Assembly: GCF_014696435.1 (NCBI RefSeq)
Contig: NZ_JACJQG010000062.1
Location: 1-60,078 of the forward strand
DNA from: Calothrix anomala FACHB-343
GTDB lineage: Bacteria > Cyanobacteriota > Cyanobacteriia > Cyanobacteriales > Nostocaceae
Reading direction: 5' to 3'
DNA length: 60,078 nt
A program made the position numbers and the translations under genes. Of this stretch, positions 20,359-56,260 are shown piece after piece. How positions within the stretch are numbered: the stretch's first letter is position 1; each line of letters starts with the position of its first letter. The notes under the pieces were generated by a model that had not been told where the DNA came from, did no database searches, and saw nothing but the letters and a program-made list of their open reading frames with translations.

Positions 20359-23300
20359 ATGGAACCACTCTCCGCTACTATCGGCTTTATTGTTGGCTTA
20401 ATTGGCTTTATTGCTAGTACAGTGCAAGTGCTGGACTATATAGAAAAACGTCGCGAAAAGCAGCAAGCTGATACTCAACAAGCAAATCAGCCAAATCCCC
20501 AGCTAAAACCTGCAACTTCCCATCGCGTTGATTGGGGGGAAGCTGTTGATGTGTCGGTGTTTTATGGACGGGTGGATGAACTGACGCAGCTGGAAACATG
20601 GGTAGTAGAACAAGGTTGTCGGGTGGTGGCGCTGTTGGGAATGGGGGGAATTGGCAAAACTTCTCTATCTATTAAACTGGCGCAAAAAATTCAAGGGGAA
20701 TTTGATTATGTGATTTGGCGGAGTTTGCGCAATGCGCCACCGATAGAAGATATTCTGGCAGATTTAATTAAGTTTCTCTCTCATCAACAACAAACTGATT
20801 TACCTCAAGATGTGGGGGAAAGAGTTTCTTTATTAATTGATTATCTCCGCAGTTCCCGTTGTCTGGTAATTCTCGATAATGCGGAGTCAATTTTTCAATC
20901 GGGTGCGTTGGCTTATCGCGGCGGTTATGAAGCTTACGGCGAACTTATTAGGAGAATTGGCGGCACAAATCATCAAAGTTGTTTAATTCTCACGAGTCGT
21001 GAAAAACCTCCAGAAATAGCAGCTTCGGAAGGGGAAACTCTCCCGGTACGCGCTTTACAACTCACGGGGTTAAAAGCGGTAGATGGGGAAGAAATTTTTC
21101 ACACTCAGGGACTATCAGGAACGCCAACAGAACAAGTTAAATTAATCGAATTTTATAAAGGTCATCCTTTAGCTTTAAAAATTATCTCAACGACAATTAA
21201 AGAATTATTTGATAGTAGTATTGCTGCTTTTTTAGCTCAGGATACGGTAGTTTTTGGAGGAATTCGCCAACTTTTAGACCAGCAATCTCAGCGCCTTTCT
21301 GATTTAGAAACAGAGGTGATGTACTGGCTAGCAATTAATCGCGAACCTGTGGGAATTGGGGAACTAAAAGAAGATATTGTTAATTTACCTTCTCAATCTA
21401 ATTTAGTGGAAGCGTTGCAATCATTGGCGAGAAGGTCATTAATCGAAAAAAGTAATGCTTTATTTACTCTGCAACCGGTGGTAATGGAATATGCGAGCGA
21501 TCGCCTAATTGCCGAAATCTGTGAAAATCTAGTTAATGGGGAAATTACTACTTGTAATCGCTATGCTTTAATGAAAGCAACGGCAAAAGATTATATCCGG
21601 GAAGCGCAAATTCGGCTGATAGTTAAACCACTGGCGGAACGGTTGCTGAATTTATTGGGTAGTAATAAAAAAGTTGTCGGTAAATTAACAGAACTTATCT
21701 CAACGTTACAAACTAAATTTTCCCATCAACCAGGGTATGCTGGCGGGAATATTATAAATTTACTTTGTTATCTGCAAACAGATTTAACTAATTATGATTT
21801 TTCCAGTCTGACAATTTGGCAAGCTTATCTGAAAGGGGAAAATTTACAGCAAGTAAAATTAATTAATGCGACTTTTGAACGTTCAGTTTTTACCGATATT
21901 CTCGCCACTATTTTCTCTGTCGCCTTTAGCCCCAATGGTAAGATTTTAGCTACAGGCGATGCTAACGGCGAAATTCGGCTATGGCAAATCGATGACGGTC
22001 AACCGATTTTAACTTTTAAAGGTCACACAGGCTTTGTCCGTTCCGTCGCCTTTAGTCCTGACGGACAAACTTTAGCCAGTGGCAGTGTTGACAAAACTAT
22101 CAAATTATGGTCAGTAAATGACGGTAAATGTATTCAAACTTTACAAGGTCACAGCGATCGCGTAGAGTCAGTAGCATATAGTCCCAACGGTCAGCTGATA
22201 GTTAGCGGTAGTTACGACCAAAATCTGCGCATTTGGTCAGCGAATACGGGACAATGCGTGCAAATTTTCCAAGGACATACTAACGAAATTTGGTCAGTCG
22301 CTTTTAGTCCCGATAGTCAAACTGTCGCCAGTGCTAGTTACGACCAAACTGTGCGACTATGGTCAATGAGCGATGGTAAATGCTTGCAAGTTCTGTATGG
22401 ACATACAGATAAACTGCGGTCAGTCGCCTTTAGTCCCGATGGTCAAATGTTAGCCAGTGCTAGTTATGACCAAACTGTGCGAATATGGTCAGTTAATAAC
22501 GGTCAATGCTTGCAAGTTTTACAAGGACATAGCGATCGCGTATTAGCAGTAAGATTTAGTCCAGATAATCAAACCGTAGTTAGTAGTAGTTACGACCAAA
22601 GCGTGAGATTATGGTCAGTTAATAACGGTGAATGTTTGCAAATATTGCAAGGACATAGCGATCGCGTTTGGGCTGTTGCCTTTAGTCCTGATGGTAAAAT
22701 CTTAGCCAGTGCAGGTTATGACCAAACAGTAAGATTGTGGTCAGTCAGTGGTGGTGAATGTATTAAAGTATTTCAAGGTTATATTAACGGTGTCGAGTCA
22801 GTCGCCTTTAGTCCCGATGGTCAAACCTTAGCCAGTGGTGGTTTTGACCAAAAAGTCAGACTATGGTCTATTGTTAACAATCAATGTCGGAGAACCTTAG
22901 ACGCTCATACTCAGCAAGTCAGGTCAGTAGCATTTAGTCCTAATGGAGAAATTTTAGCTAGTTGCAGCCACGACCGCACAATTAGATTATGGTCAGTCAA
23001 AGATGGTAAATCTCTCCATATTTTAGCCGAACATCAGCATAAAGTCCGTTCCATCGCCTTTAGTCCCGATAGCCAAATTTTAGCTAGTGGTAGTCACGAC
23101 AGCACAATTAGATTATGGTCTGTCAGCACAGGTAAATGTTTGCATGTTTTACAAGAAACCGCCAATCAAGTTTGGTCAGTCGCCTTCAGTCCCGACGGAC
23201 AAATTTTAGCCAGTGCCGGTTACGATCGAGAAGTGCGGTTATGGTCAGTCAACAATCGCCAATATCTCAGAATATTACAAGGACACACCGGACAAGTAGG

Positions 23301-23769
23301 CCCCGTAGCATTTAGTCCCGACGGAAAACTTTTAGCCAGTGGCGGAAACGACCAAATAATTAGACTATGGTCAGTGAATGATGGTGAATGCGTGAAAATT
23401 CTCCAAGGACATAGTAACTGGATTTGGTCAGTCGCCTTTAGTCCCGACGGAAAAATTTTAGCCAGTGGCGGTGATGACCAAACAGTAAAATTATGGTCAG
23501 TGGATGAAGGTAAATGTATAAGTACCTTACCCGCACATATTAACCGAGTTTGGTCTGTGGCATTTCATCCTGATGGTCATACCTTAGCCAGTGGTAGCGG
23601 CGATGGCACGATAAAATTATGGAATGTGAATACAAGTGAATGTCTCCAGGTTTTGCAAGTAGAAAGACCTTATGAAGGAATGAACATCACCGGAATCACA
23701 GGTTTAACTCCCGCACAGGTAGCGACATTAAAAGCTTTAGGTGCGGTGGAGAGTGATTCTAGGGGCTAG
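20359..23769 (+). CDS. NB-ARC STAND NTPase with 14 WD40 repeats
   Basis: This is a 1136-residue protein. An N-terminal hydrophobic helix (about 6-25) and a charged linker precede an NB-ARC/NACHT-type NTPase: Walker A GMGGIGKT at 94-101, Walker B VILDNAE near 175, sensor [10 protein letters not shown] helical arm and a short [14 protein letters not shown] segment follow. From about residue 515 there are 14 WD40 units of the form [20 protein letters not shown], enough for two seven-bladed propellers. It ends with a [20 protein letters not shown] tail seen in such proteins. The architecture is that of Apaf-1-like signal-dependent oligomerising switches. The effector may be the N-terminal membrane helix, since no enzyme domain is present. 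The WD40 units are highly similar in DNA, so unit number may vary between strains. Confidence 0.92.
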
Positions 23770-23803
23770 GGGTTAGGGGCTAGGGGCTAGAGAATAGGGG
23801 TTA

Positions 23804-23844
23804 GGGCATTGCCCAGCATATCAGGGTTTTGGTAGGCAATGCCC
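23804..23844. repeat. Hairpin after the NB-ARC/WD40 gene
   Basis: GGGCATTGCC (23804-23813) and GGCAATGCCC (23835-23844) form a perfect 10-bp stem. It follows a GGGGCTA/GGGGTTA short repeat (23763-23803) right after the stop codon. It could be a terminator or a dispersed hairpin; there is no T-run. Confidence 0.5.
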
Positions 23845-23860
23845 ACACTACACTTAAGAT

Positions 23861-23968
23861 TACAGCTATTTTCAGGTAAAAATACCACGCTGTAGGGGCA
23901 CGGCACCAGTAAAATTATTGTATGTACCAAAAAATTGTCGATGCCGTGCCCCTACGACAGATGTGGTT
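23861..23968. mobile_element. Hairpin element, family B, copy 1, right end cut at the 21-bp array
   Basis: Long arms TGTAGGGGCACGGCA (23891-23905) and TGCCGTGCCCCTACG (23942-23956) surround AAAATTATTGTATGTAC. The other copy at 52039-52167 carries matching ends (TACAGCA / TGCTGTA). Here the left end is present, but sequence identity stops right after GATGTGGTT, exactly where the 21-bp repeat array begins. Confidence 0.7.
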
Positions 23969-24232
23969 CTCATTCACGAGCAAAATAACCTCATTCACGA
24001 GGAAAAAAGCCTCATTCACGAGGAAAATAACCTCATTAATGAGCAAAATAACCTCGTTCACGAGGAAAATAACCTCATTAATGAGCAAAATAACCTCATT
24101 CACGAGGAAAAAAGCCTCATTCATGAGGAAAATAACCTCGTTCACGAGCAAAATAACCTCGTTCACGAGCAAAATAACCTCATTCACGAGCAAAATAACC
24201 TCGTTCACGGAGCAAAAAGCCTGGTAAATGAG
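23969..24232. repeat. 21-bp-period palindromic repeat array 1 (12.5 units)
   Basis: Twelve units of exactly 21 bp and a closing half unit run without any indel. Each unit is a 12-bp near-palindrome (CTCATTAATGAG, CTCGTTCACGAG, CTCATTCATGAG or CTCATTCACGAG) plus a 9-bp linker (CAAAATAAC, GAAAATAAC or GAAAAAAGC). Arm changes often compensate each other. Both strands are open because the period is 7 codons, giving LIHEQNN-like heptads. No start signal, composition or family supports a protein. A sister array lies at 29921-30205 on the other side of the histidine kinase gene. A run of protein-binding sites on one DNA face, or RNA hairpins, is possible. Confidence 0.9.
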
Positions 24233-24236
24233 AATT

Positions 24237-24483
24237 TAATACAGGCGATCGCACAATTTTTGCTAAATTTGTAGTCAGCACTTCACTGCTTCCCAACCCA
24301 GGACTAAATTCCTGACTACAAAATCGTTAAAACCTAGCGTATAAGAAAAGCGATCGCAATATATACCGCAGATTGCCAGTTGGTAAGGTACAGATGATCG
24401 TTAATTGTAGGGGCACTGGCACTGCCATGCCCCGAAGGGTGTACCTCAACCGGAAATATGCTGTAACTCGGTTCCTAATGAAA
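24237..24483. repeat. Left copy of the duplicated flank around the histidine kinase
   Basis: ACAGGCGATCGCACAATTTT, then CTTCCCAA, AAGAAAAGCGATCGCA and ACTCGGTTCCTAATGAAA, recur in the same order at 30318-30441. The copies differ by substitutions, small indels and one inserted family-A element (24363-24465 here). Both copies directly follow a 21-bp array, so array plus flank is one duplicated unit in direct orientation about 6 kb apart. Confidence 0.7.
24363..24465. mobile_element. Hairpin element, family A, copy 2 of 4
   Basis: The same element as at 2772, with ATACCGC and GCTGTAA-like ends. It sits inside the left duplicated flank. The right flank has GCGATCGCATTACATAACTC without the element, giving a filled/empty pair. 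Confidence 0.75.
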
Positions 24484-24488
24484 CAAAC

Positions 24489-24600
24489 GGGAGGAGGGCA
24501 CGGCAATGCCGATGCCCCTACTTTCGCCCCGCAAGGGGATAAGAGCAAAAAAGAACTCTTTGCGGGGATGAAAAATAATTGAAAATAAGAGCGATCGCAC
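24489..24600. repeat. 112-bp repeat with a CRISPR-like core, copy 1
   Basis: It begins GGGAGGAGGGCACGGCAATG and contains CGCCCCGCAAGGGGAT and TTGCGGGGATGAAA, which match the core of the CRISPR repeats of this window. It ends at a HIP1 site. A nearly identical copy (one base longer) lies at 30996-31108, directly after the last repeat of the short CRISPR array. Confidence 0.75.
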
Positions 24601-24680
24601 AAATCTAAACTCAGCAAAAAGAGCGATCGCATTTGATAAATTGAGTATCTACTTTAAAGCGAAAATAGCGATCGCATTCT

Positions 24681-24720
24681 TCCCCCTCTGCCCCCTGCCC
24701 CCTGCCCCCTGCCCCCCTGC
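24681..24720. repeat. CCCCCTG tandem repeat upstream of the histidine kinase
   Basis: Four to five units of CCCCCTG with slight length variation, about 90 bp before the kinase start codon. It is low complexity and slippage-prone. Confidence 0.7.
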
Positions 24721-24811
24721 TTTCATCCCAAGCTCAGTCTAAAGAAAGATCCTGGTTTAGTGGAATTCGGATTAAATAGAAAAAACCGTGTACGCCTACG
24801 GGTAAAGGAAA

Positions 24812-27800
24812 ATGAAGCGCGACTCTACTGGTAAGTTTGTGAGGAATTGGGAATTAGAAAGCAAACAACGGGTTAGTGTCACGCTTACCAATACAGCATG
24901 GCGATCGCTCGATGCGGCAGCCCAAAAGCAAGGAATTTCGCGATCGGAATTGATTGAATGCTTTGCACGGAGCTTGGGAACAGAGGAACAGCCAGATTTC
25001 CCAGAAATGCAAGCAACTGCGGAAAATGCTGGATTACAAGCATCTATCGCTAATTTAGAACAGCAAATTCAGCATTTAGAGGCTGTAGTAGAAAAGACAC
25101 CAGATGCAATCGCCCGCATCGCTGCGCTAGAAACTGAACGAAAGGTGATTACTATCCTGGAAAGTATTACCGATGCTTTTGTGGCTTTTGATTGTGATTG
25201 GCGCTACACCTATATTAATCAAGCCGCCGCCAAAATTTTAAACCAATCGCCACAGGAACTCATTGGTAAAAATGTTTGGCATGAAGTGTTTCCCGAACTG
25301 ATCGATGGTATTGCTTATCAAGCGATGCATCGCGCTGTGGCTCAACAACTTCCGGTTTCTTGGGAGGAATATGGCGAACCTGTGGGGCGGTGGTTAGAAG
25401 TCCATGCTTATCCCTCTGCTGAAGGTGTGGCGGTATATTTTCGCGATATCACAGAACGCAAACAAACCGAAGCCGAACGCGATCGCTTAATGCAAGAATT
25501 GGAAATTGAACATGGGCGGTTTGTGGCGGTTTTGCGCCAGTTACCCACTGGGGTGCTGATTGCAGATGCAGCGACAGGTAAATTAGTTCTCGCTAACGAA
25601 CAAGCCAAGCAAATTGTCGGCTATAGCTATGAAGAATCCCTAGAACTGGAAGAATACGTCCCCCTTACTCCCTTTGTCGCCTTTGGTAGGGATGGAGAAA
25701 TGTATGCGCCTGATGATTATCCTTTAGCGCGATCGCTCCGCACTGGTGAAATCATCTCTAATGAAGAATTGACACTGCAAAATGATGGTAAGCAAACTTT
25801 TATTAGTGTCAATTCCGCACCCATCTTCAATAGCCAAAATCAAATTGTCGCAGCAGTCGCCGTATTTCAAGATATTACCGAGCGCAAGCAAATTGAAACA
25901 GCACTTAGGCAGCAAACCGCAGCTTTAGAAAATCAGCATAAATGGCTAGAAACTGTGTTGGATTTAATGCCAACGGCAACGGTATTTGTAGAACCAGCTA
26001 CAGGAAAAATCACCTTCACTAATCGGATTGCTAACGAATTAGCAGGTAGTGAAATCCCGAAAAATAAAGCTTTTGATGAGTATATTGATACTTATTACTG
26101 CACCGATGCCAATGGCGAACCTATTCCCAGAGAAAAAATGCCCTTGGTGTTGTTAGCAACAGGAAAACATCTGCAAAATTATCAAATCAACTGGCATACA
26201 CCAGGGGGTATTCGCTCTACACTGTGCTGGGGAGAAACTTTACCCGCAATGTATGGGTATCCGGAAACGGGTATTTGCATGTTTCAAGATGTAACTCATC
26301 TCAAACAGATTGAAGAAAATCTGCGGCAAACAGAAGAACGCTTGCAACTGGCTTTATCTTCCGCCCAGATAGTCGCCTGGGATATGGATTTAGTCAACAA
26401 TCGTGTAGTCTGTTCCCTTAATTCAGTTTGTGCTTGGGGCTTGGAAGCCAGCACAATCGAGGAATTTGTCACCAAAATTCATCCAGACGATCGCCAGCAA
26501 GTTTTGCAAGCAGCCGAAAACGCCGCCGCAGGCGAAAGGATTTATCAGCAAGAGTACCGGGTAATTGCCGCCGATGGTACGGTGCGCTGGCTAAATAGCC
26601 AAGGTAGAGTTTACCTGGATGCAACAGGGCGGGGAGCGCGGATGATAGGCGTTTCCGTGGATATTACAGAACGCCAACAACTGTTGGAAAAGTTGCAACA
26701 CAAGGAGAAACAACAGGAATTTTTAATTCAATTAAATGAAGCAATTCGCGCCATTGTTGAGCCAAAGGAAATTATGTGGCAGGTGGTATGCGCCACTGGG
26801 CAACATTTCCAAGTTACGCGCTGTACCTACGGCGAAATTGATTCCACCCAAGAATACGTCATTGTTGAGCGCGACTACTGCAACGGCGTCATCAGCGTTG
26901 TTGGCTCTCACCAGATGGATTCTTTTGGCCCGGAAATTATTACCCAACTCAAACAGGGGCAAACAATTGTTGTCGATGATGTGGATATCGATCCTCGAAC
27001 TCAGGGAGCAGGTGCGGCTGCTTTTGATGCCATTGAAACCAAATCGCTTTTATGCGTGCCTTTGGTTAAACAAGGCAAGTTTGTAGCCTTATTTGTATTA
27101 CACCATATATCTCCACGTCCCTGGACAGATGAGGAAGTGGCGCTAATGGAGCAAATTGCCGAGCAAACTTGGTTAGCCGTAGAGCGATCGCGCGCGGAAG
27201 AAGCTTTGCGGGAAAGTGAGGCGCATTTACAACTGGCGCTGAATGTCGGGCGTATGGGTTCCTGGGATTGGGAAGTGCAAACAGGAGCTTTACACTGGTC
27301 AGAAGGACATTTTACCGTGCTAGGGTTGCAACCTTATGAATGTCAACCCGCTTATGAAGTTTGGTCTAGTCGGGTACATCCCGATGATTTAGCTACAGCC
27401 GAAGCCACCCTAGAGCAAGCCATGCAGCAAAGGAAAGATTACCATCACGAATATCGTTTGCGGTGGACAGATGGCTCAATTCACTGGGTAGAAGCTAGAG
27501 GACAGGCTACATACGATTACCTGGGAAAACCGAAAAATTCCATTGGCGTAGTCATTGATATTACCGAACGCAAGCAAGCAGAACAAGAAAGAGAACGCTT
27601 GCTAAAGCGCGAACGCATCGCCCGGATGCAAGTAGAAACCATACAACGGCAATTAGCAACTATTTTTGAAACTTCCCCGGTGGGTATGGGGTTTTTAGAT
27701 AGCCAGCAGCGATTTATTGCCATTAATGAAGCATTAGCCCAAATCAACGGGTTAACGCGGGAACAACATTTAGGAAATTCGATTCCGCAGCTATTTAGTG

Positions 27801-29704
27801 AATCAGACCCCCGATTAGTCGCCGTTTTCGAGGAGATTTACAAGACTGGTAATCGCTTTATCTCACCTAACTTTGCAGTAAATGTTCCAGCACGCAGCGA
27901 TCGCTCTCCCGGTTATTACAATGTTTACTATCTACCCACAACCAACGCCAATCATCAAGTCGAAGATGTTTTGGTGTATGTGGTAGATGTAACAGAACGT
28001 GTAAGGTTAGAGCGCGATCAACGTTTTCTAGGAGAAGCCAGCGCAGTTTTAGCATCTTCTCTCGATTACCAAATTACCCTAGAGCGGGTAGCACAATTAG
28101 CAGTACCAGAGTTAGCCGACTGGTGTACAGTCCACATCGTTAAAGAAGATGGTTGCATTGAACAGATTGCTGTCGCCCACGCCGATCCAGGTAAACTGCA
28201 ATGGGCAGAAGAAATTCGGTGCAAATATCCTTTGAACCCCGATGATCCCAGAGGTGCGGCGTTAACTTTACGCACAGGTGAATCGCAGTTAATCGCAGAT
28301 ATCCCCGATGAATTGCTAGTGCAAGCTGCGCGCAGTGCCGAACATTTAGAGATTTTGCGCTCTGTAGGCTTTAAAGCTTTTATGTCAGTACCATTACGCA
28401 CACAAAACCGAATTTTTGGTGTAATTTCTTTTATATCTGCCGAATCAGGGCAAGTTTACGACCAGGGCAATTTACAATTAGCCGAGGAACTAGCTCACCG
28501 TGCATCCTTAGCAATTGATAATGCCCAATTGTACCGCAGGGCGCAAAGCGATCGCGCTAAAGCCGAAGCCGCCAATAGAATTAAAGATGAATTTCTCGCC
28601 GTACTATCTCACGAATTGCGATCGCCCCTGAATCCGATTTTAGGTTGGACAAAACTTCTCCGCAGTCAGCAGTTAAACCCCGCAAAAATCGACCAAGCCT
28701 TAGAAACCATCGAACGCAATGCCAAATTACAAGCCCAATTAATTGAAGATTTACTCGATGTTTCCCGCATTCTTCAAGGGAAAATGTCTTTAAACGTCGC
28801 CCCAGTCAATTTAGCTGCAACCATTGAAGCAGCCAACGAAACAGTGAGACTAGCCGCCGAAGCCAAGAATATTCACATCCAAACCATACTTAACCCGATT
28901 TCCGGCACAGTTTCCGGCGATACCAACCGTTTACAACAAGTTATCTGGAATTTGTTAGCGAACGCTGTCAAATTCACCCCCCCTGGTGGAGAAGTTGAGG
29001 TAGAACTACAACAGGTGGGGATGTATGCACAAATTCAAGTTACAGATACAGGAATTGGTATCAGCCGAGAATTTTTACCTTATGTCTTTGAATACTTCCG
29101 CCAAGAAGACGGCGCAACCACCAGAAAATTTGGCGGTTTAGGATTAGGATTAGCCATTGTCCGCCATTTAACAGAACTGCATGGGGGAACAGTCTTTGCA
29201 GATAGCCCCGGACAGAATCTGGGCGCAACCTTCACAGTTAAGTTACCATTAAATATAGTTGAGTCAGATTTATCTGGCGATGCTAGCAATTTGCAAAGCG
29301 CGATCGACCTTAACGGTATGCAGATATTAGTTGTCGATGATGATGCAGATATGCGCGACTTAGCAGAATTCATCCTCACCCAAGCTGGCGCACAAGTAAC
29401 TACAGCCGATTCTGCATTGCAAGTTTTAACTTTATTACAGCAATCGCTCCCAGATTTACTAGTATCTGACATAGGTATGCCAGAAATGGACGGCTATTGC
29501 CTAATTCGGCAAATTCGACAATACCCACCGCAACAGGGAGGAAATTTACCCGCGATCGCACTTTCCGCCTATGCAGGAGAAATCAACCAGCAACAAGCCC
29601 TACAAGCCGGATTTCAACAGCATATCCCCAAACCCATCGACCCAGATGAGTTAGTCAGGATAATTGCATTGTTAATGGGAAATATTACAGAAAGTCGGCA
29701 GTAA
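24812..29704 (+). CDS. Hybrid histidine kinase: RHH-like N terminus, multiple PAS and two GAF domains, REC
   Basis: This 1630-residue soluble protein begins with a ribbon-helix-helix-like segment (about 18-56, RVSVTLTNTAWRSLDAAAQK, then GISRSELIE). A coiled coil (75-112) follows. PAS domains lie at about 113-220, 232-365, 375-500 and 508-625, each ending DITERK or similar. GAF 1 spans about 635-795, two more PAS about 805-925 and 945-1065, and GAF 2 about 1072-1245. HisKA lies at 1258-1325 with phospho-His in LSHELRSPLNPILGW. The HATPase (1370-1480) has N, G1 and G2 boxes (NLLANAVKF, DTGIGIS, GGLGLGLAIV). The C-terminal REC domain (1503-1625) has DDD and phospho-Asp in VSDIGMPEMDG. Neither GAF shows an obvious bilin-binding DCF or CxH motif that I could assign. 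The RHH-like start suggests dimerisation or DNA contact. The kinase core resembles that of the gene at 44725-48639. The gene is bracketed by repeat arrays. Confidence 0.93.
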   Translation: MKRDSTGKFVRNWELESKQRVSVTLTNTAWRSLDAAAQKQGISRSELIECFARSLGTEEQPDFPEMQATAENAGLQASIANLEQQIQHLEAVVEKTPDAIARIAALETERKVITILESITDAFVAFDCDWRYTYINQAAAKILNQSPQELIGKNVWHEVFPELIDGIAYQAMHRAVAQQLPVSWEEYGEPVGRWLEVHAYPSAEGVAVYFRDITERKQTEAERDRLMQELEIEHGRFVAVLRQLPTGVLIADAATGKLVLANEQAKQIVGYSYEESLELEEYVPLTPFVAFGRDGEMYAPDDYPLARSLRTGEIISNEELTLQNDGKQTFISVNSAPIFNSQNQIVAAVAVFQDITERKQIETALRQQTAALENQHKWLETVLDLMPTATVFVEPATGKITFTNRIANELAGSEIPKNKAFDEYIDTYYCTDANGEPIPREKMPLVLLATGKHLQNYQINWHTPGGIRSTLCWGETLPAMYGYPETGICMFQDVTHLKQIEENLRQTEERLQLALSSAQIVAWDMDLVNNRVVCSLNSVCAWGLEASTIEEFVTKIHPDDRQQVLQAAENAAAGERIYQQEYRVIAADGTVRWLNSQGRVYLDATGRGARMIGVSVDITERQQLLEKLQHKEKQQEFLIQLNEAIRAIVEPKEIMWQVVCATGQHFQVTRCTYGEIDSTQEYVIVERDYCNGVISVVGSHQMDSFGPEIITQLKQGQTIVVDDVDIDPRTQGAGAAAFDAIETKSLLCVPLVKQGKFVALFVLHHISPRPWTDEEVALMEQIAEQTWLAVERSRAEEALRESEAHLQLALNVGRMGSWDWEVQTGALHWSEGHFTVLGLQPYECQPAYEVWSSRVHPDDLATAEATLEQAMQQRKDYHHEYRLRWTDGSIHWVEARGQATYDYLGKPKNSIGVVIDITERKQAEQERERLLKRERIARMQVETIQRQLATIFETSPVGMGFLDSQQRFIAINEALAQINGLTREQHLGNSIPQLFSESDPRLVAVFEEIYKTGNRFISPNFAVNVPARSDRSPGYYNVYYLPTTNANHQVEDVLVYVVDVTERVRLERDQRFLGEASAVLASSLDYQITLERVAQLAVPELADWCTVHIVKEDGCIEQIAVAHADPGKLQWAEEIRCKYPLNPDDPRGAALTLRTGESQLIADIPDELLVQAARSAEHLEILRSVGFKAFMSVPLRTQNRIFGVISFISAESGQVYDQGNLQLAEELAHRASLAIDNAQLYRRAQSDRAKAEAANRIKDEFLAVLSHELRSPLNPILGWTKLLRSQQLNPAKIDQALETIERNAKLQAQLIEDLLDVSRILQGKMSLNVAPVNLAATIEAANETVRLAAEAKNIHIQTILNPISGTVSGDTNRLQQVIWNLLANAVKFTPPGGEVEVELQQVGMYAQIQVTDTGIGISREFLPYVFEYFRQEDGATTRKFGGLGLGLAIVRHLTELHGGTVFADSPGQNLGATFTVKLPLNIVESDLSGDASNLQSAIDLNGMQILVVDDDADMRDLAEFILTQAGAQVTTADSALQVLTLLQQSLPDLLVSDIGMPEMDGYCLIRQIRQYPPQQGGNLPAIALSAYAGEINQQQALQAGFQQHIPKPIDPDELVRIIALLMGNITESRQ

Positions 29705-29920
29705 AACTCACTCGGCGTTGCTGATTAAGGAGATGATTCAGGCTGACGCAGGGACGCAGGGATACCCAGACGCGGAGACGCAAAGACACCCAAACGCGAA
29801 GATACGGCATGGGAAAAGCCTTGCCCTTATAATTTGTAATATAACTGCGTACCACAATTGAATGCAAAACCCTATAGCTAGAAAAAACAGTCTTTGATAT
29901 AGAGGAATGAGGATAAAAGC

Positions 29921-30205
29921 CTCATTCACGAGCAAAAAAGACTCATTAACCAGTATCAAAGACTCATTAACCAGTATCAAAGCCTCATTAACCAGTATCA
30001 AAGACTCGTTAACCAGTATCAAAGACTCGTTCGCGAGCAAAAAAGCCTCATTAACCAGTATCAAAGACTCGTTAACCAGTATTAAAGACTCGTTCGCGAG
30101 TAAAAAAGACTCGTTAACCAGTATCAAAGACTCGTTCGCGAGTAAAAAAGCCTCATTAACCAGTATCAAAGACTCGTTCGCGAGTAAAAAAGACTCGTGA
30201 ATGAG
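29921..30205. repeat. 21-bp-period repeat array 2 (13.5 units)
   Basis: Thirteen units of exactly 21 bp plus a closing half unit (CTCGTGAATGAG). Two unit types alternate irregularly: CTCGTTCGCGAG or CTCATTCACGAG with linker CAAAAAAGA/TAAAAAAGC, and CTCATTAACCAG or CTCGTTAACCAG with linker TATCAAAGA. The first type keeps dyad symmetry; the second breaks it in one arm. As in array 1, the first unit is CTCATTCACGAG and the last ends AATGAG. The preceding 29705-29920 stretch is a GACGC(A/G)GG-like low-complexity run followed by plain AT-rich sequence, with no gene. Confidence 0.9.
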
Positions 30206-30211
30206 AATTGA

Positions 30212-30315
30212 TAGCGGTTCTCACTTGGATTAAATACAAAATTATATCATCGCCTGTAGGGGCATCGGCACTGCCGTGCCCTCAAGATTTTATTGGACTC
30301 AACCGAAAACCGCTA
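30212..30315. mobile_element. 104-bp hairpin element, family C
   Basis: The ends TAGCGGTT (30212) and AACCGCTA (30308-30315) are inverted repeats, extendable with one mismatch. The core GGGGCATCGGCACTGCCGTG resembles that of family A. It lies between array 2 and the right duplicated flank. The left flank shows AATTTAATACAGGCG with no element at the same junction, so this is a second filled/empty pair. Confidence 0.7.
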
Positions 30316-30441
30316 TATACAGGCGATCGCACAATTTTGGCTAACTTCCTAGTCAACACACAGCTTACTTCCCAAACTACGACTGAAAGCCTAACGTACA
30401 AGAAAAGCGATCGCATTACATAACTCGGTTCTCAATGAAAT
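30316..30441. repeat. Right copy of the duplicated flank around the histidine kinase
   Basis: Homologous to 24237-24360 plus 24464-24483, without the family-A element. It ends ACTCGGTTCTCAATGAAA. Homology then stops and the leader of the short CRISPR array follows. Confidence 0.65.
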
Positions 30442-30745
30442 CTCACTGCGATGCTTAAATTTAACAGAAATCACTCGTTACTTGTAACAAATCAGTAACA
30501 AATTTGACTTAATTAGCTCAAAAATTTTATATTAAAAATAGTTTGTGTCGCTCATCGACACCACTCACCAGAACCTTGAAAACCGCATAACTTCGTTGAC
30601 TGGTGTCGATTGCTTGCACAGCCAAGTTTCCAGGCTGTGAAATGCCTAAATTATTGATAATTTCTGTAGCTTATTGACATTATAAAAAGTGGTGTCGATT
30701 GGGGGGTCTACAACTCTCTCCCCGCAAGGCTTCCAGAAGTGAACT
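30442..30745 (+). promoter_or_regulatory. Probable leader of the short CRISPR array
   Basis: This gene-free AT-rich stretch lies on the side where the repeats are intact. CCAGAACCTTGA at 30568-30579 is shared with the presumed leader of the long array (56154-56165, opposite strand) at a similar distance from the first repeat. Three copies of the GGTGTCGAT motif (two direct, one inverted as ATCGACACC) lie between 30552 and 30700. Leader side is inferred; no promoter was defined. Confidence 0.5.
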
Positions 30746-30991
30746 CTTTACACTTACCTCGCCCCGCAAGGGGATGGAAACTTCTGTAGGTTGATTGGTT
30801 TGAAGAACTGCGTCTGACTTTACACTTACCTCGCCCCGAAAGGGAATGGAAACAAAATAATGCCTGTGGTTGTTCCTCCGTAGATTAGACTTTACACTTA
30901 CCTCGCCCCGAAAGGGGATGGAAACAAATGTAATCAAACGGAATTAAAGTGCTTTGCTTTACACTTACCTGGCCCCGCAAGGGGATGAAAC
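30746..30991 (+). CRISPR. Short CRISPR array, 4 repeats and 3 spacers, no cas genes nearby
   Basis: The 36-bp repeats start CTTTACACTTACC and end GGGGATGGAAAC around a CCCCGCAAGGGG palindrome. They lie at 30746-30781, 30818-30853, 30890-30925 and 30957-30991. The last is degenerate (one substitution and one missing base), which puts the leader on the left. Spacers are 30782-30817, 30854-30889 and 30926-30956 (36, 36 and 31 bp) and differ from each other. The 3' ATGGAAAC handle is like those of cyanobacterial type I and III repeats. The minus-strand open frame across it is an artefact of repeat periodicity. Confidence 0.93.
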
Positions 30992-30995
30992 GAAA

Positions 30996-31108
30996 GGGAG
31001 GAGGGCACGGCAATGCCGATGCCCCTACCTTTCGCCCCGCAAGGGGATAAGAGCAAAAAAGAACCCCTTGTGGGGATGAAAGATAATTGAAAATTAGAGC
31101 GATCGCAC
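30996..31108. repeat. 113-bp repeat with a CRISPR-like core, copy 2
   Basis: Nearly identical to 24489-24600. It begins 4 bp after the terminal repeat of the short array and holds another CGCCCCGCAAGGGGAT core, as if an old array end had been copied together with a hairpin element. Confidence 0.7.
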
Positions 31109-54812: not shown

Positions 54813-56014
54813 CCAACATTCCCCTTGCGGGGTAATAGATATTTGAAACAGTTCGGCTTTTTGAAGGGGGTAAAATTCGCCCTGGTTTCAATCCCCTTAC
54901 GGGGTAATAGGTATTTGAAACCTAAAACTTTAATTGGCCCTAGCGGACAATTAAATAGTTTCAATCCCCTTGCGGGGTAATAGGTATTTGAAACTTCAGC
55001 CGCAATTCTTGATTGTTCTGCTGAGTAGCGTTTCAATCCCCTTGCGGGGTAATAGGTATTTGAAACTTGGTTAACCCAAGCGGGTGTAAGAGGTTCAATC
55101 TCGTTTCAATCCCCTTGCGGGGTAATAGGTATTTGAAACCACCCGAAAAAATATTGATGCTGCTACAGACAGCAAGTTTCAATCCCCTTGCGGGGTAATA
55201 GGTATTTGAAACCTCGTAAGTTACGCGGTAGACTTCAGATAAAACCATGTTTCAATCCCCTTGCGGGGTAATAGGTATTTGAAACGAATCGGGTTTACTT
55301 AACAACAATAAACTTTATCCGGGTTTCAATCCCCTTGCGGGGTAATAGATATTTGAAACCAAGGAAGCCATCCTGTCTCCTGGCGTTACTCAAGGTTTCA
55401 ATCCCCTTGCGGGGTAATAGATATTTGAAACCTTAGGGTTAACTGACCGTCCTATATATCTAACGTTTCAATCCCCTTGCGGGGTAATAGATATTTGAAA
55501 CCTTGGCATGGGCAACGGCAAACTTACCCAATCGTAAAGTTTCAATCCCCTTGCGGGGTAATAGATATTTGAAACCCTGTAGCGTGTCACGTATGGCGTA
55601 ATAAGGACAAAGTAACGTATGTTTCAATCCCCTTGCGGGGTAATAGATATTTGAAACTGCCGCAGGAAAGCAATTTCTTACTAGATATATTGTTTCAATC
55701 CCCTTGCGGGGTAATAGATATTTGAAACTAAACAGAAGGATAAACGCTAACTAACATGTAAAGGTTTCAATCCCCTTGCGGGGTAATAGATATTTGAAAC
55801 CCGCCAAGACTTGCCAATTATTTTCGCATTGAGAGGTTTCAATCCCCTTGCGGGGTAATAGATATTTGAAACCCTTAGCTTCTGTCTTGCGATCTTTTTC
55901 CTGGTTGTTTCAATCCCCTTGCGGGGTAATAGATATTTGAAACTTTAGATGCCGCTTTGCTGCTGTTAGTCTTATTCGTTTCAATCCCCTTGCGGGGTAA
56001 TAGATATTTGAAAC
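54813..56014 (-). CRISPR. CRISPR array, 17 repeats and 16 spacers, no cas genes nearby
   Basis: The 37-bp repeats read GTTTCAATCCCCTTGCGGGG then TAATAG(A/G)TATTTGAAAC. The first repeat (54813-54849) has a ruined 5' part; the other 16 run from 54885-54921 to 55978-56014. Spacers are 33-37 bp except the eleventh (55576-55620, 45 bp). Six consecutive repeats (54885-55285) carry TAATAGGTATT; the nine or so on the right carry TAATAGATATT. On the minus strand repeats end GGGGATTGAAAC, the classical 3' handle. The degenerate repeat is at the left end, so transcription from a leader on the right is inferred. Translated frames across it (KYLLPRKGIET) are artefacts. Confidence 0.97.
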
Positions 56015-56260
56015 CCTTCGTGCTGAAACCCATACACAGCAACCATCTTGTCAGAGGTTTTGGCAGATCGAAAAAAATGGTTATTTTCAGACGACCTTAT
56101 TGCAATTAATTTGCAACTGTGCCAAATCTCCAAAGGCTAAACTTATTAATTTGTCAAGGTTCTGGCGTTTTTGGCGGAACCCCCCAGGTTTTTGCCCCCG
56201 CTTCGGTTTGCCAAACATCAAGCTAACACATCAATAATAGGATGATATCAAATCTATTAC
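56015..56260 (-). promoter_or_regulatory. Probable leader of the long CRISPR array
   Basis: This gene-free stretch lies next to the intact end of the array. On the minus strand it contains CCAGAACCTTGA (56154-56165), also found in the leader of the short array at a comparable distance from the first repeat. AT-rich near the repeats, with a GC-rich GGCGGAACCCCCCAGG segment further out. The exact promoter was not identified. Confidence 0.5.

What the first reader, a model, noticed from the sequence alone, without database searches (positions are those of the whole stretch)
23969..24232. Array 1 of a 21-bp-period palindromic repeat with compensating arm changes
Units are exactly 21 bp, two turns of B-DNA, with no indel in 12 units. 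The 12-bp core switches between CTCAT..ATGAG and CTCGT..ACGAG, so both arms change together in six units. Five further units have CTCAT..ACGAG, which mispairs as A-C on the plus strand but pairs as G-U in RNA from the minus strand. This points to selection for dyad symmetry: a row of dimer binding sites on one face of DNA, or RNA hairpins. It also reads as heptads in both strands, but nothing else supports a protein.
Basis: seen in the sequence. Interest (0 to 1): 0.75.

Follow-up and report, generated by a model that had tools for sequence, protein, structure and literature searches.

The report
Non-coding 21-bp repeat arrays in cyanobacteria
The array is real and belongs to a class of non-coding repeat rows with an exact 21-base step, scattered between genes of nitrogen-fixing filamentous cyanobacteria and often found just behind one small-protein gene family; the step is kept while the letters change, so the spacing itself may be what matters, but the claimed paired letter changes are not supported.

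Summary
Array 1 (23969-24232) is a genuine 21-bp array, but its 'compensating arms' are not significant alone (Fisher p 0.49) and vanish in 940 units of 86 related arrays. It is not protein-coding. It belongs to a class of intergenic arrays with exact 21-bp period in Nostocaceae: at least 12 loci of this sequence type in its own genome, 18 of 59 genomes searched, own included, plus six intergenic arrays of other unit sequence and the same period in 1.2 Mb sampled at fixed coordinates. A small-protein gene family without Pfam match (here 'PYQN') carries a 21-, 42- or 63-bp array on its 3' side in 29 of 30 best loci; 60 of 64 distinct 3' regions have lag 21 as strongest. PYQN and this array type co-occur (16 of 16 against 2 of 43 genomes). 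Diverged units stay in phase; gaps of whole units are the commonest. Best reading: a DNA element whose two-helical-turn spacing is selected, probably a row of protein sites on one DNA face; the protein is unknown. Neutral minisatellite and 3' RNA remain rivals.

The parts
23969..24232 (+). Array 1: 12 full 21-bp units plus one partial unit; core CTCRTTNAYGAG + A-rich 9-bp spacer
   Evidence: non-coding tests; intergenic in this window
24200..24220 (+). Last full unit of array 1, readable as +1/-1 compensated indel that keeps the 21-bp length
   Evidence: sequence; similar ...GGAGTTCAAAGA units in other arrays
29921..30210 (+). Array 2 of the same family: 13-14 units; core mostly CTCRTTAACCAG, with an uncompensated C-C at pair 3-10 in 8 of 13 units
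20359..23769 (+). NB-ARC + WD40 (STAND-type) gene; array 1 lies 200 bp 3' of it
   Evidence: Pfam NB-ARC E 2.6e-14, WD40. Genes about 80% identical in G005 and G007 have arrays starting within about 30 bp of their 3' end, in the opposite orientation to array 1
24812..29704 (+). PAS/GAF hybrid histidine kinase between the two arrays
   Evidence: Pfam; ortholog 93% identical in G001 with an 8-unit array upstream

Best explanation
Array 1 is one member of a class of non-coding intergenic arrays with exact 21-bp period in heterocystous cyanobacteria. SHOWN: it shows no sign of translation; its sequence type is dispersed over many loci; arrays differ in copy number at orthologous sites; arrays inside one genome resemble each other more than arrays of other genomes do, which fits exchange between loci; the same period occurs with several unit sequences; arrays sit on the 3' side of most examined copies of one small-protein gene family. 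INFERRED: the conserved quantity is distance, 21 bp or two turns of B-DNA, so the arrays most likely act as DNA, as a row of sites presented on one face to a protein that binds side by side, with loose demand on sequence (weak dyads in several arrays). INFERRED more weakly: the arrays are cis elements of the genes they abut (PYQN-type small proteins, some NB-ARC/WD40 and ATPase genes), and the PYQN protein, with its basic tail, is a candidate but unproven partner.
For: Non-coding: no frame is free of stops in all 86 arrays; the best frame (R1) has 21 stops in 16 arrays, the number expected from column-shuffled units (19.5, sd 2.4); T4-type 3' regions differ 796/836/872 by position modulo 3 while the adjacent CDS differs 239/135/1002. 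Period: in 1.2 Mb sampled at fixed coordinates from 16 genomes, seven TRF arrays of period 21 with >=4 copies, six of them between genes (one, in L209, lies inside a 255-aa ORF), against three rows of any other period from 16 to 60 (17, 27, 36). The unit types are mostly not alike in sequence. PYQN: 29 of 30 best loci have a 21/42/63-bp array 3', 16 of these 29 starting within 20 bp of the stop codon and 26 of 29 with the T-rich strand in gene sense; 14 of 20 further loci, mostly 42-49% paralogs, have one too, with other unit sequences; 60 of 64 distinct 3' regions have lag 21 as top lag of 12-40, against 33 of 388 control ORF ends (lag-21 score >=62: 56 of 64 against 8 of 388; the control also had to have 21 on top). 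T4 units, 41-56% alike in their best window, stay in phase by eye for up to about 230 bp. Gap runs of 21 or 42 are 35 of the 56 listed for T4. Co-occurrence 16 of 16 against 2 of 43 genomes. Within-genome similarity 0.850 (309 pairs) against 0.787 between genomes (2965 pairs); inside the genus 0 of 500 label permutations reach the excess. Basic C-terminal tail, +2 to +5, in 71 of 71 listed proteins, some listed twice.
Confidence: 0.4

Rival explanations
1. Neutral or selfish minisatellite: a 21-bp tandem repeat that grows and shrinks by slippage or unequal exchange, spreads by ectopic recombination, and has no function; period 21 is inherited from ancestral arrays.
For: Copy-number change (8 against 13 units at the array-1 ortholog), concerted evolution inside genomes, no orientation rule among 77 arrays with both neighbours, labile sites.
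Against: Arrays persist 3' of most examined PYQN genes down to 42-49% paralogs; diverged T4 arrays stay in phase; several unit sequences, mostly unlike each other, share the period.
Confidence: 0.3
2. RNA element: the array is transcribed from the upstream gene as a structured 3' UTR that stabilises, terminates or sequesters RNA.
For: PYQN arrays lie 3', 16 of 29 starting within 20 bp of the stop codon and 26 of 29 in one orientation; array 1 folds well on both strands against dinucleotide shuffles (z -8.6 and -8.7); against column-permuted arrays some T1, T3 and T4 arrays still reach z -3 to -4.8.
Against: Against column-permuted arrays array 1 falls to z -4.0/-1.9 and the five T2 arrays and L190, L196 and L207 show no excess; no compensatory changes; arrays lie 5' of ATPase genes (9 of 9 loci); RNA folding does not require an exact 21-nt period.
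Confidence: 0.18
3. Protein-coding heptad repeats (21 bp = 7 codons) on the minus strand.
For: R1 has the fewest stops of the six frames (21 against 88-947) and a mild synonymous excess (233 against 191, z 3.1).
Against: Frame F2, with 88 stops, has a larger excess (z 4.1); stops in R1 equal expectation; no consistent ATG; positions 1 and 19, both third positions in R1, are among the most conserved; no codon periodicity in T4, T2 or T1b, and in the small T1a and T1c sets two positions are high and one low, unlike a CDS; array L067 and its ortholog L144 share an in-frame stop.
Confidence: 0.03
4. Higher-order form of the heptanucleotide (STRR) repeats: three degenerate 7-mers make a 21-bp unit.
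For: T2-type arrays upstream of kinase orthologs show lag-7 identity 0.37-0.43 (L172, L176, L178, L180) and lie beside a GGGGATT/GGGGACT 7-mer array; 7-bp arrays are very common in the same genomes.
Against: The family of array 1 shows lag-7 identity 0.25, inside its background of 0.13-0.33 (82 arrays); L190, L191, L196, L200, L207 and L209 also show no 7-bp signal, while L217 does (0.58).
Confidence: 0.06

Closest known systems
Heptanucleotide repeats of Nostocales (PMC4692102, passages seen; the name STRR is recalled for them)
   Same: Intergenic, dispersed, abundant tandem arrays with variable copy number in heterocystous cyanobacteria
   Different: Unit 21 bp, not 7; the array-1 family has no 7-bp sub-period
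Plasmid and chromosome iteron arrays such as Rep-iterons (recalled; no iteron paper read)
   Same: Row of direct repeats spaced about two helical turns, beside a gene for a small protein
   Different: Many dispersed chromosomal loci; neighbour protein has no recognised Rep or DNA-binding domain; no link to an origin shown
REP/BIME elements and their RAYT genes (REPs: PMC3733652, listing only; RAYT pairing recalled)
   Same: Dispersed intergenic repeats with partial dyad symmetry, and a gene family that carries the repeat beside it
   Different: Long 21-bp tandem arrays; the linked gene has no Pfam match, transposase or other
Minisatellites / VNTRs
   Same: Tandem units, copy-number change, concerted evolution
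   Different: One period across units that are mostly unlike in sequence; phase kept in diverged arrays; recurrent place behind a gene family

Membership tests
CRISPR array | Repeats separated by unique spacers | tested here: not met
   Units are contiguous and near-identical throughout, including the 9-bp stretch
STRR (heptanucleotide) repeat | 7-bp unit | tested here: not met
   Period 21; lag-7 identity 0.25 in 82 arrays, inside background
Minisatellite / VNTR | Tandem units with copy-number variation at orthologous sites | tested here: met
   8 against 13 units at the array-1 ortholog; other pairs; gaps of 21 and 42
Iteron array | Direct repeats at a constant spacing of about two helical turns | tested here: met
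   Exact 21 bp
Iteron array | Adjacent gene encodes the binding (Rep-type) protein | tested here: inconclusive
   PYQN: no Pfam match, fold comparison uninformative
Iteron array | Located in a replication origin | not tested
   Origins not mapped; arrays are dispersed over many loci
REP/BIME with RAYT | Conserved palindrome with compensating stem changes | tested here: not met
   No excess pairing at 4-9 or 3-10
REP/BIME with RAYT | Linked tyrosine transposase gene | tested here: inconclusive
   PYQN has no Pfam match. One RAYT-looking ORF beside one array (L019) was recognised from recall, not tested
Heptad-repeat coding gene | Open frame under coding constraint | tested here: not met
Known structured RNA | Rfam match | tested here: not met
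   cmscan of 23700-30700: only one chance hit, to a microRNA family, E 0.9 and below gathering

The most novel reading that the evidence does not exclude
A chromosomal 'small protein + cognate 21-bp array' system: each subfamily of a helical small protein carries behind it an array of its own unit sequence, and copies of that array type sit at other loci (STAND, TPR, kinase genes) where the protein, or a shared partner, assembles on DNA in two-turn steps to bridge or regulate them. Partly in favour: in the five congeneric genomes with a PYQN paralog followed by a T2 array (G002, G003, G004, G006, G008) the best T2 match elsewhere reaches 183-235 bits; in G000, G001 and G005, where no such paralog was found, the best is 81-133, and in G007 132. 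These genomes are related and the query came from one of them.
Probability: 0.2. Interest if true: 0.88.

Novelty: new variant of a known kind. Interest (0 to 1): 0.6.

Why it matters
Non-coding DNA in which distance is conserved but sequence is not is rare and hard to see with ordinary homology search. If the 21-bp step is under selection, it points to an unknown architectural or regulatory DNA-protein assembly in multicellular cyanobacteria, tied to small proteins without an annotated family and sometimes near conflict-type (STAND) genes. It makes testable the old question of why repeats of fixed step length are so abundant in Nostocales genomes.

Tried and rejected
Coding heptads; compensating arms; derivation from 7-mers for this family; a gene-orientation rule for all arrays: 77 with both neighbours split 25/21/18/13; Rfam. 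Distant DNA search in plasmids gave only two Citrobacter plasmid matches at 79% over 43% of the query, taken as chance. PYQN homologs: no phage match, one plasmid homolog without array. Link to genes with long coding tandem repeats (TPR/WD40/HEAT/LRR): 25 of 70 stretches against 6 of 60 control windows, weaker after merging related sites, 14 of 48, p 0.013: kept as a lead only. A second small-protein family (YNTLL/HNTLL) with arrays 5': 10 of 13 loci had been fetched because of their arrays; of the three others one (L444) has an array, L195 and L170 do not: biased, a lead only. PDB sequence-profile search gave only chance-level hits. No known family for the PYQN fold appeared among the 148 chains aligned; the plain Foldseek search could not be run.

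Dropped before counts: first and last unit of every array (on); arrays under 7 units (autocorrelation); the CDS controls of T3 and T1c are invalid (length offset) and not used; one search kept 64 distinct 3' regions of at least 250 bp. Its four exceptions were L424, L430 and L432, which carry 42-bp arrays beyond the lag range, and L516, whose array lies further away. The 12 weak loci include two places fetched twice.

Literature: searches listed no paper on 21-bp arrays in cyanobacteria; this covers open-licence PMC only. Passages were seen of PMC4692102 and PMC5987646; the other papers named here or in the report were seen as listings only.

Full report
1. Observation. The window is contig C104 of a 9.24-Mb genome. 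The closest named relative found is G001, whose chromosome length of 8,527,291 bases equals that of Calothrix brevissima NIES-22, NZ_AP018207.1; two window stretches are 93% and 97% identical to it in DNA. Array 1 is as described: 12 units of 21 bp and a partial one. Nothing like it arises in 50 simulated windows. Unit 12 can be read as a +1/-1 pair of changes. Of the 12 units, positions 4/9 read A-C 5, A-T 3, G-C 4, G-T 0; Fisher p 0.49. Array 2 in the same window has C-C at pair 3-10 in 8 of 13 units, an uncompensated arm.

2. A family of arrays. BLAST with both arrays finds at least 12 loci of the same sequence type in this genome. Of 59 genomes searched (own included) 18 have it: all 9 of the genus, 9 of 26 others of the same family, and none of 24 genomes from 24 other families of the order. 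An exact two-unit pattern over the genome collection hits 108 stretches; the 80 listed are from Nostoc, Mojavia, Fischerella, Fortiea, Calothrix, Tolypothrix and Spirirestis, plus one contig of a Coleofasciculus MAG. I fetched 80 stretches with flanks. With four loci from the first matches this gave 86 arrays; 12 to 15 units are commonest, the range 5 to 21. They are intergenic with exceptions: of 77 with both neighbours called, 5 overlap a neighbouring ORF, and in two loci a long ORF covers an array; median distance to neighbours is about 155 bp, and there is no orientation rule.

3. Arms do not covary. In 940 internal units, permuting within arrays, pairs 4-9 (z 0.75), 3-10 (z 0.14), 5-8 (z 0.27) and 1-12 (z 0.25) show no excess of Watson-Crick pairs. 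Pair 2-11 gives z 2.4 on 882 against 881 pairs, and only the adjacent central pair 6-7 is strong (z 7.1). Dyad symmetry of the unit itself, tested in 25 arrays, has uncorrected p below 0.05 in 7, array 1 among them (0.015); it is absent in L190, L191, L196 and L207.

4. Not coding. Six-frame stops, stop depletion, synonymous excess and codon-position tests support no frame. The minus-strand frame that looks best has as many stops as shuffled columns (21 against 19.5).

5. The period is general. I sampled 60 stretches of 20 kb at fixed coordinates from 16 genomes. TRF gave seven 21-bp arrays, none of the array-1 sequence type, in five family genomes (G001, G002, G006, G011, G013). Six lie between genes; the one of G006 lies inside a 255-aa ORF. 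The five genomes from other families and the other six family genomes had none in the sampled stretches. TRF rows with at least four copies and period up to 60 were otherwise of period 7 (most), 9, 14, 6, 12, 15 and single rows of 8, 17, 27 and 36. The unit types are mostly not detectably related, with a few borderline pairs. Two of these types are dispersed in their own right.

6. The linked gene family. Array sites near a 158-aa gene ('PYQN', my label from its N terminus) recurred across genera. In a sample of 145 genomes of the family, 60 have a match at E <= 1e-20; of the 30 best loci 29 have a 21-, 42- or 63-bp array on the 3' side, and the last, L414, has none that TRF detects. In 16 of the 29 the array starts within 20 bp of the stop codon, in 26 of 29 with the T-rich strand in gene sense. 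Of 20 further loci, mostly paralogs of 42-49% identity, 14 have such arrays with other units. Those without a TRF hit still show 21 as the strongest lag of 12-40, though in L496 and L414 inside the range of shuffles. Over 64 distinct 3' regions the top lag is 21 in 60, against 33 of 388 control ORF ends; three of the four exceptions are 42-bp arrays. These loci share ancestry, so the count is not of independent events; the point is retention over that divergence. In T4-type loci the repeat begins at the stop codon itself and its units, 41-56% alike in the best window, stay in phase by eye for up to about 230 bp. Alignment gaps of 21 or 42 are the commonest in T4 (35 of 56 listed runs over 28 pairs, not independent), less so in T1b (11 of 23 are multiples of 21), and 12 of 34 in 15 other ortholog pairs. 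Presence of PYQN (E <= 1e-5) and of array-1-type arrays coincide: 16 of 16 against 2 of 43 genomes, p 1e-12; counted by genus inside the family 8 of 8 against 2 of 19, p 2e-5. Shared descent is not corrected for.

8. How arrays evolve. In several ortholog pairs arrays diverge more than flanks (for example L087/L093: flanks 97 and 96%, array 88%), in others not (L067/L144: flanks 85 and 98%, array 95%). Arrays at different loci of one genome are more alike (0.850) than arrays of different genomes (0.787); inside the genus 0 of 500 label permutations reach the observed excess. This fits exchange between loci.

9. Mechanism. What is kept is distance more than letters. That favours a physical reading at DNA level: sites two helical turns apart on one face, for a protein that assembles side by side. 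I put 0.40 on it. A functionless minisatellite (0.30) explains turnover but not retention and phase; a 3' RNA element (0.18) explains the 3' position but not the exact period or the 5' arrays.

10. Novelty. As a dispersed tandem array it is a new variant of a known kind. The combination of a 21-bp period shared by unlike sequences and a linked small-protein family was not found in the searched literature. Related context, conflict genes of multicellular bacteria, is in PMC7159879 and PMC10907252 (listing only).

Noticed in passing
window 30700-31000 and 54958-56015: Two CRISPR-like arrays (CTTTACACTTACCTCGCCCCGCAAGGGGATGGAAAC type, and GTTTCAATCCCCTTGCGGGGTAATAGRTATTTGAAAC type).
   Followed up: no
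L387, L390, L397, L401, L405; L362, L369, L374, L375, L376; L444: A second family of small proteins (about 140-170 aa, YNTLL/HNTLL motif, no Pfam match for the fragments tested) with 21-bp arrays roughly 150 bp 5' of the gene.
   Followed up: partly
L172, L176, L178, L180: Upstream of kinase orthologs in G006, G002, G003 and G004, a 21-bp array of another unit type lies next to a GGGGATT/GGGGACT heptamer array.
   Followed up: partly
window 24812-25000 (kinase N terminus): RHH_1 match at E 9e-4, below Pfam's cut-off, residues 20-53 of the hybrid histidine kinase.
   Followed up: partly
array-centred stretches L065-L144: Neighbouring genes often hold long coding tandem repeats (TPR, WD40, HEAT, LRR): 14 of 48 independent sites against 6 of 60 control windows.
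   Followed up: partly
L003, L108, L111, L125, L127, L128, L129, L138, L140: An AAA_16-like ATPase gene with a 21-bp array just 5' of its start in 9 of 9 of these loci; among 30 orthologs fetched by protein 9 have a 21-, 42- or 63-bp array on that side.
   Followed up: partly
L567 (Thiodictyon plasmid pTs417): PYQN homolog beside arginine decarboxylase and pyruvate kinase genes in a purple sulfur bacterium, without a 21-bp array.
   Followed up: yes
L209:1100-1213: A five-copy 21-bp array inside a 255-aa ORF of G006, so not every 21-bp repeat in these genomes is intergenic.
   Followed up: no
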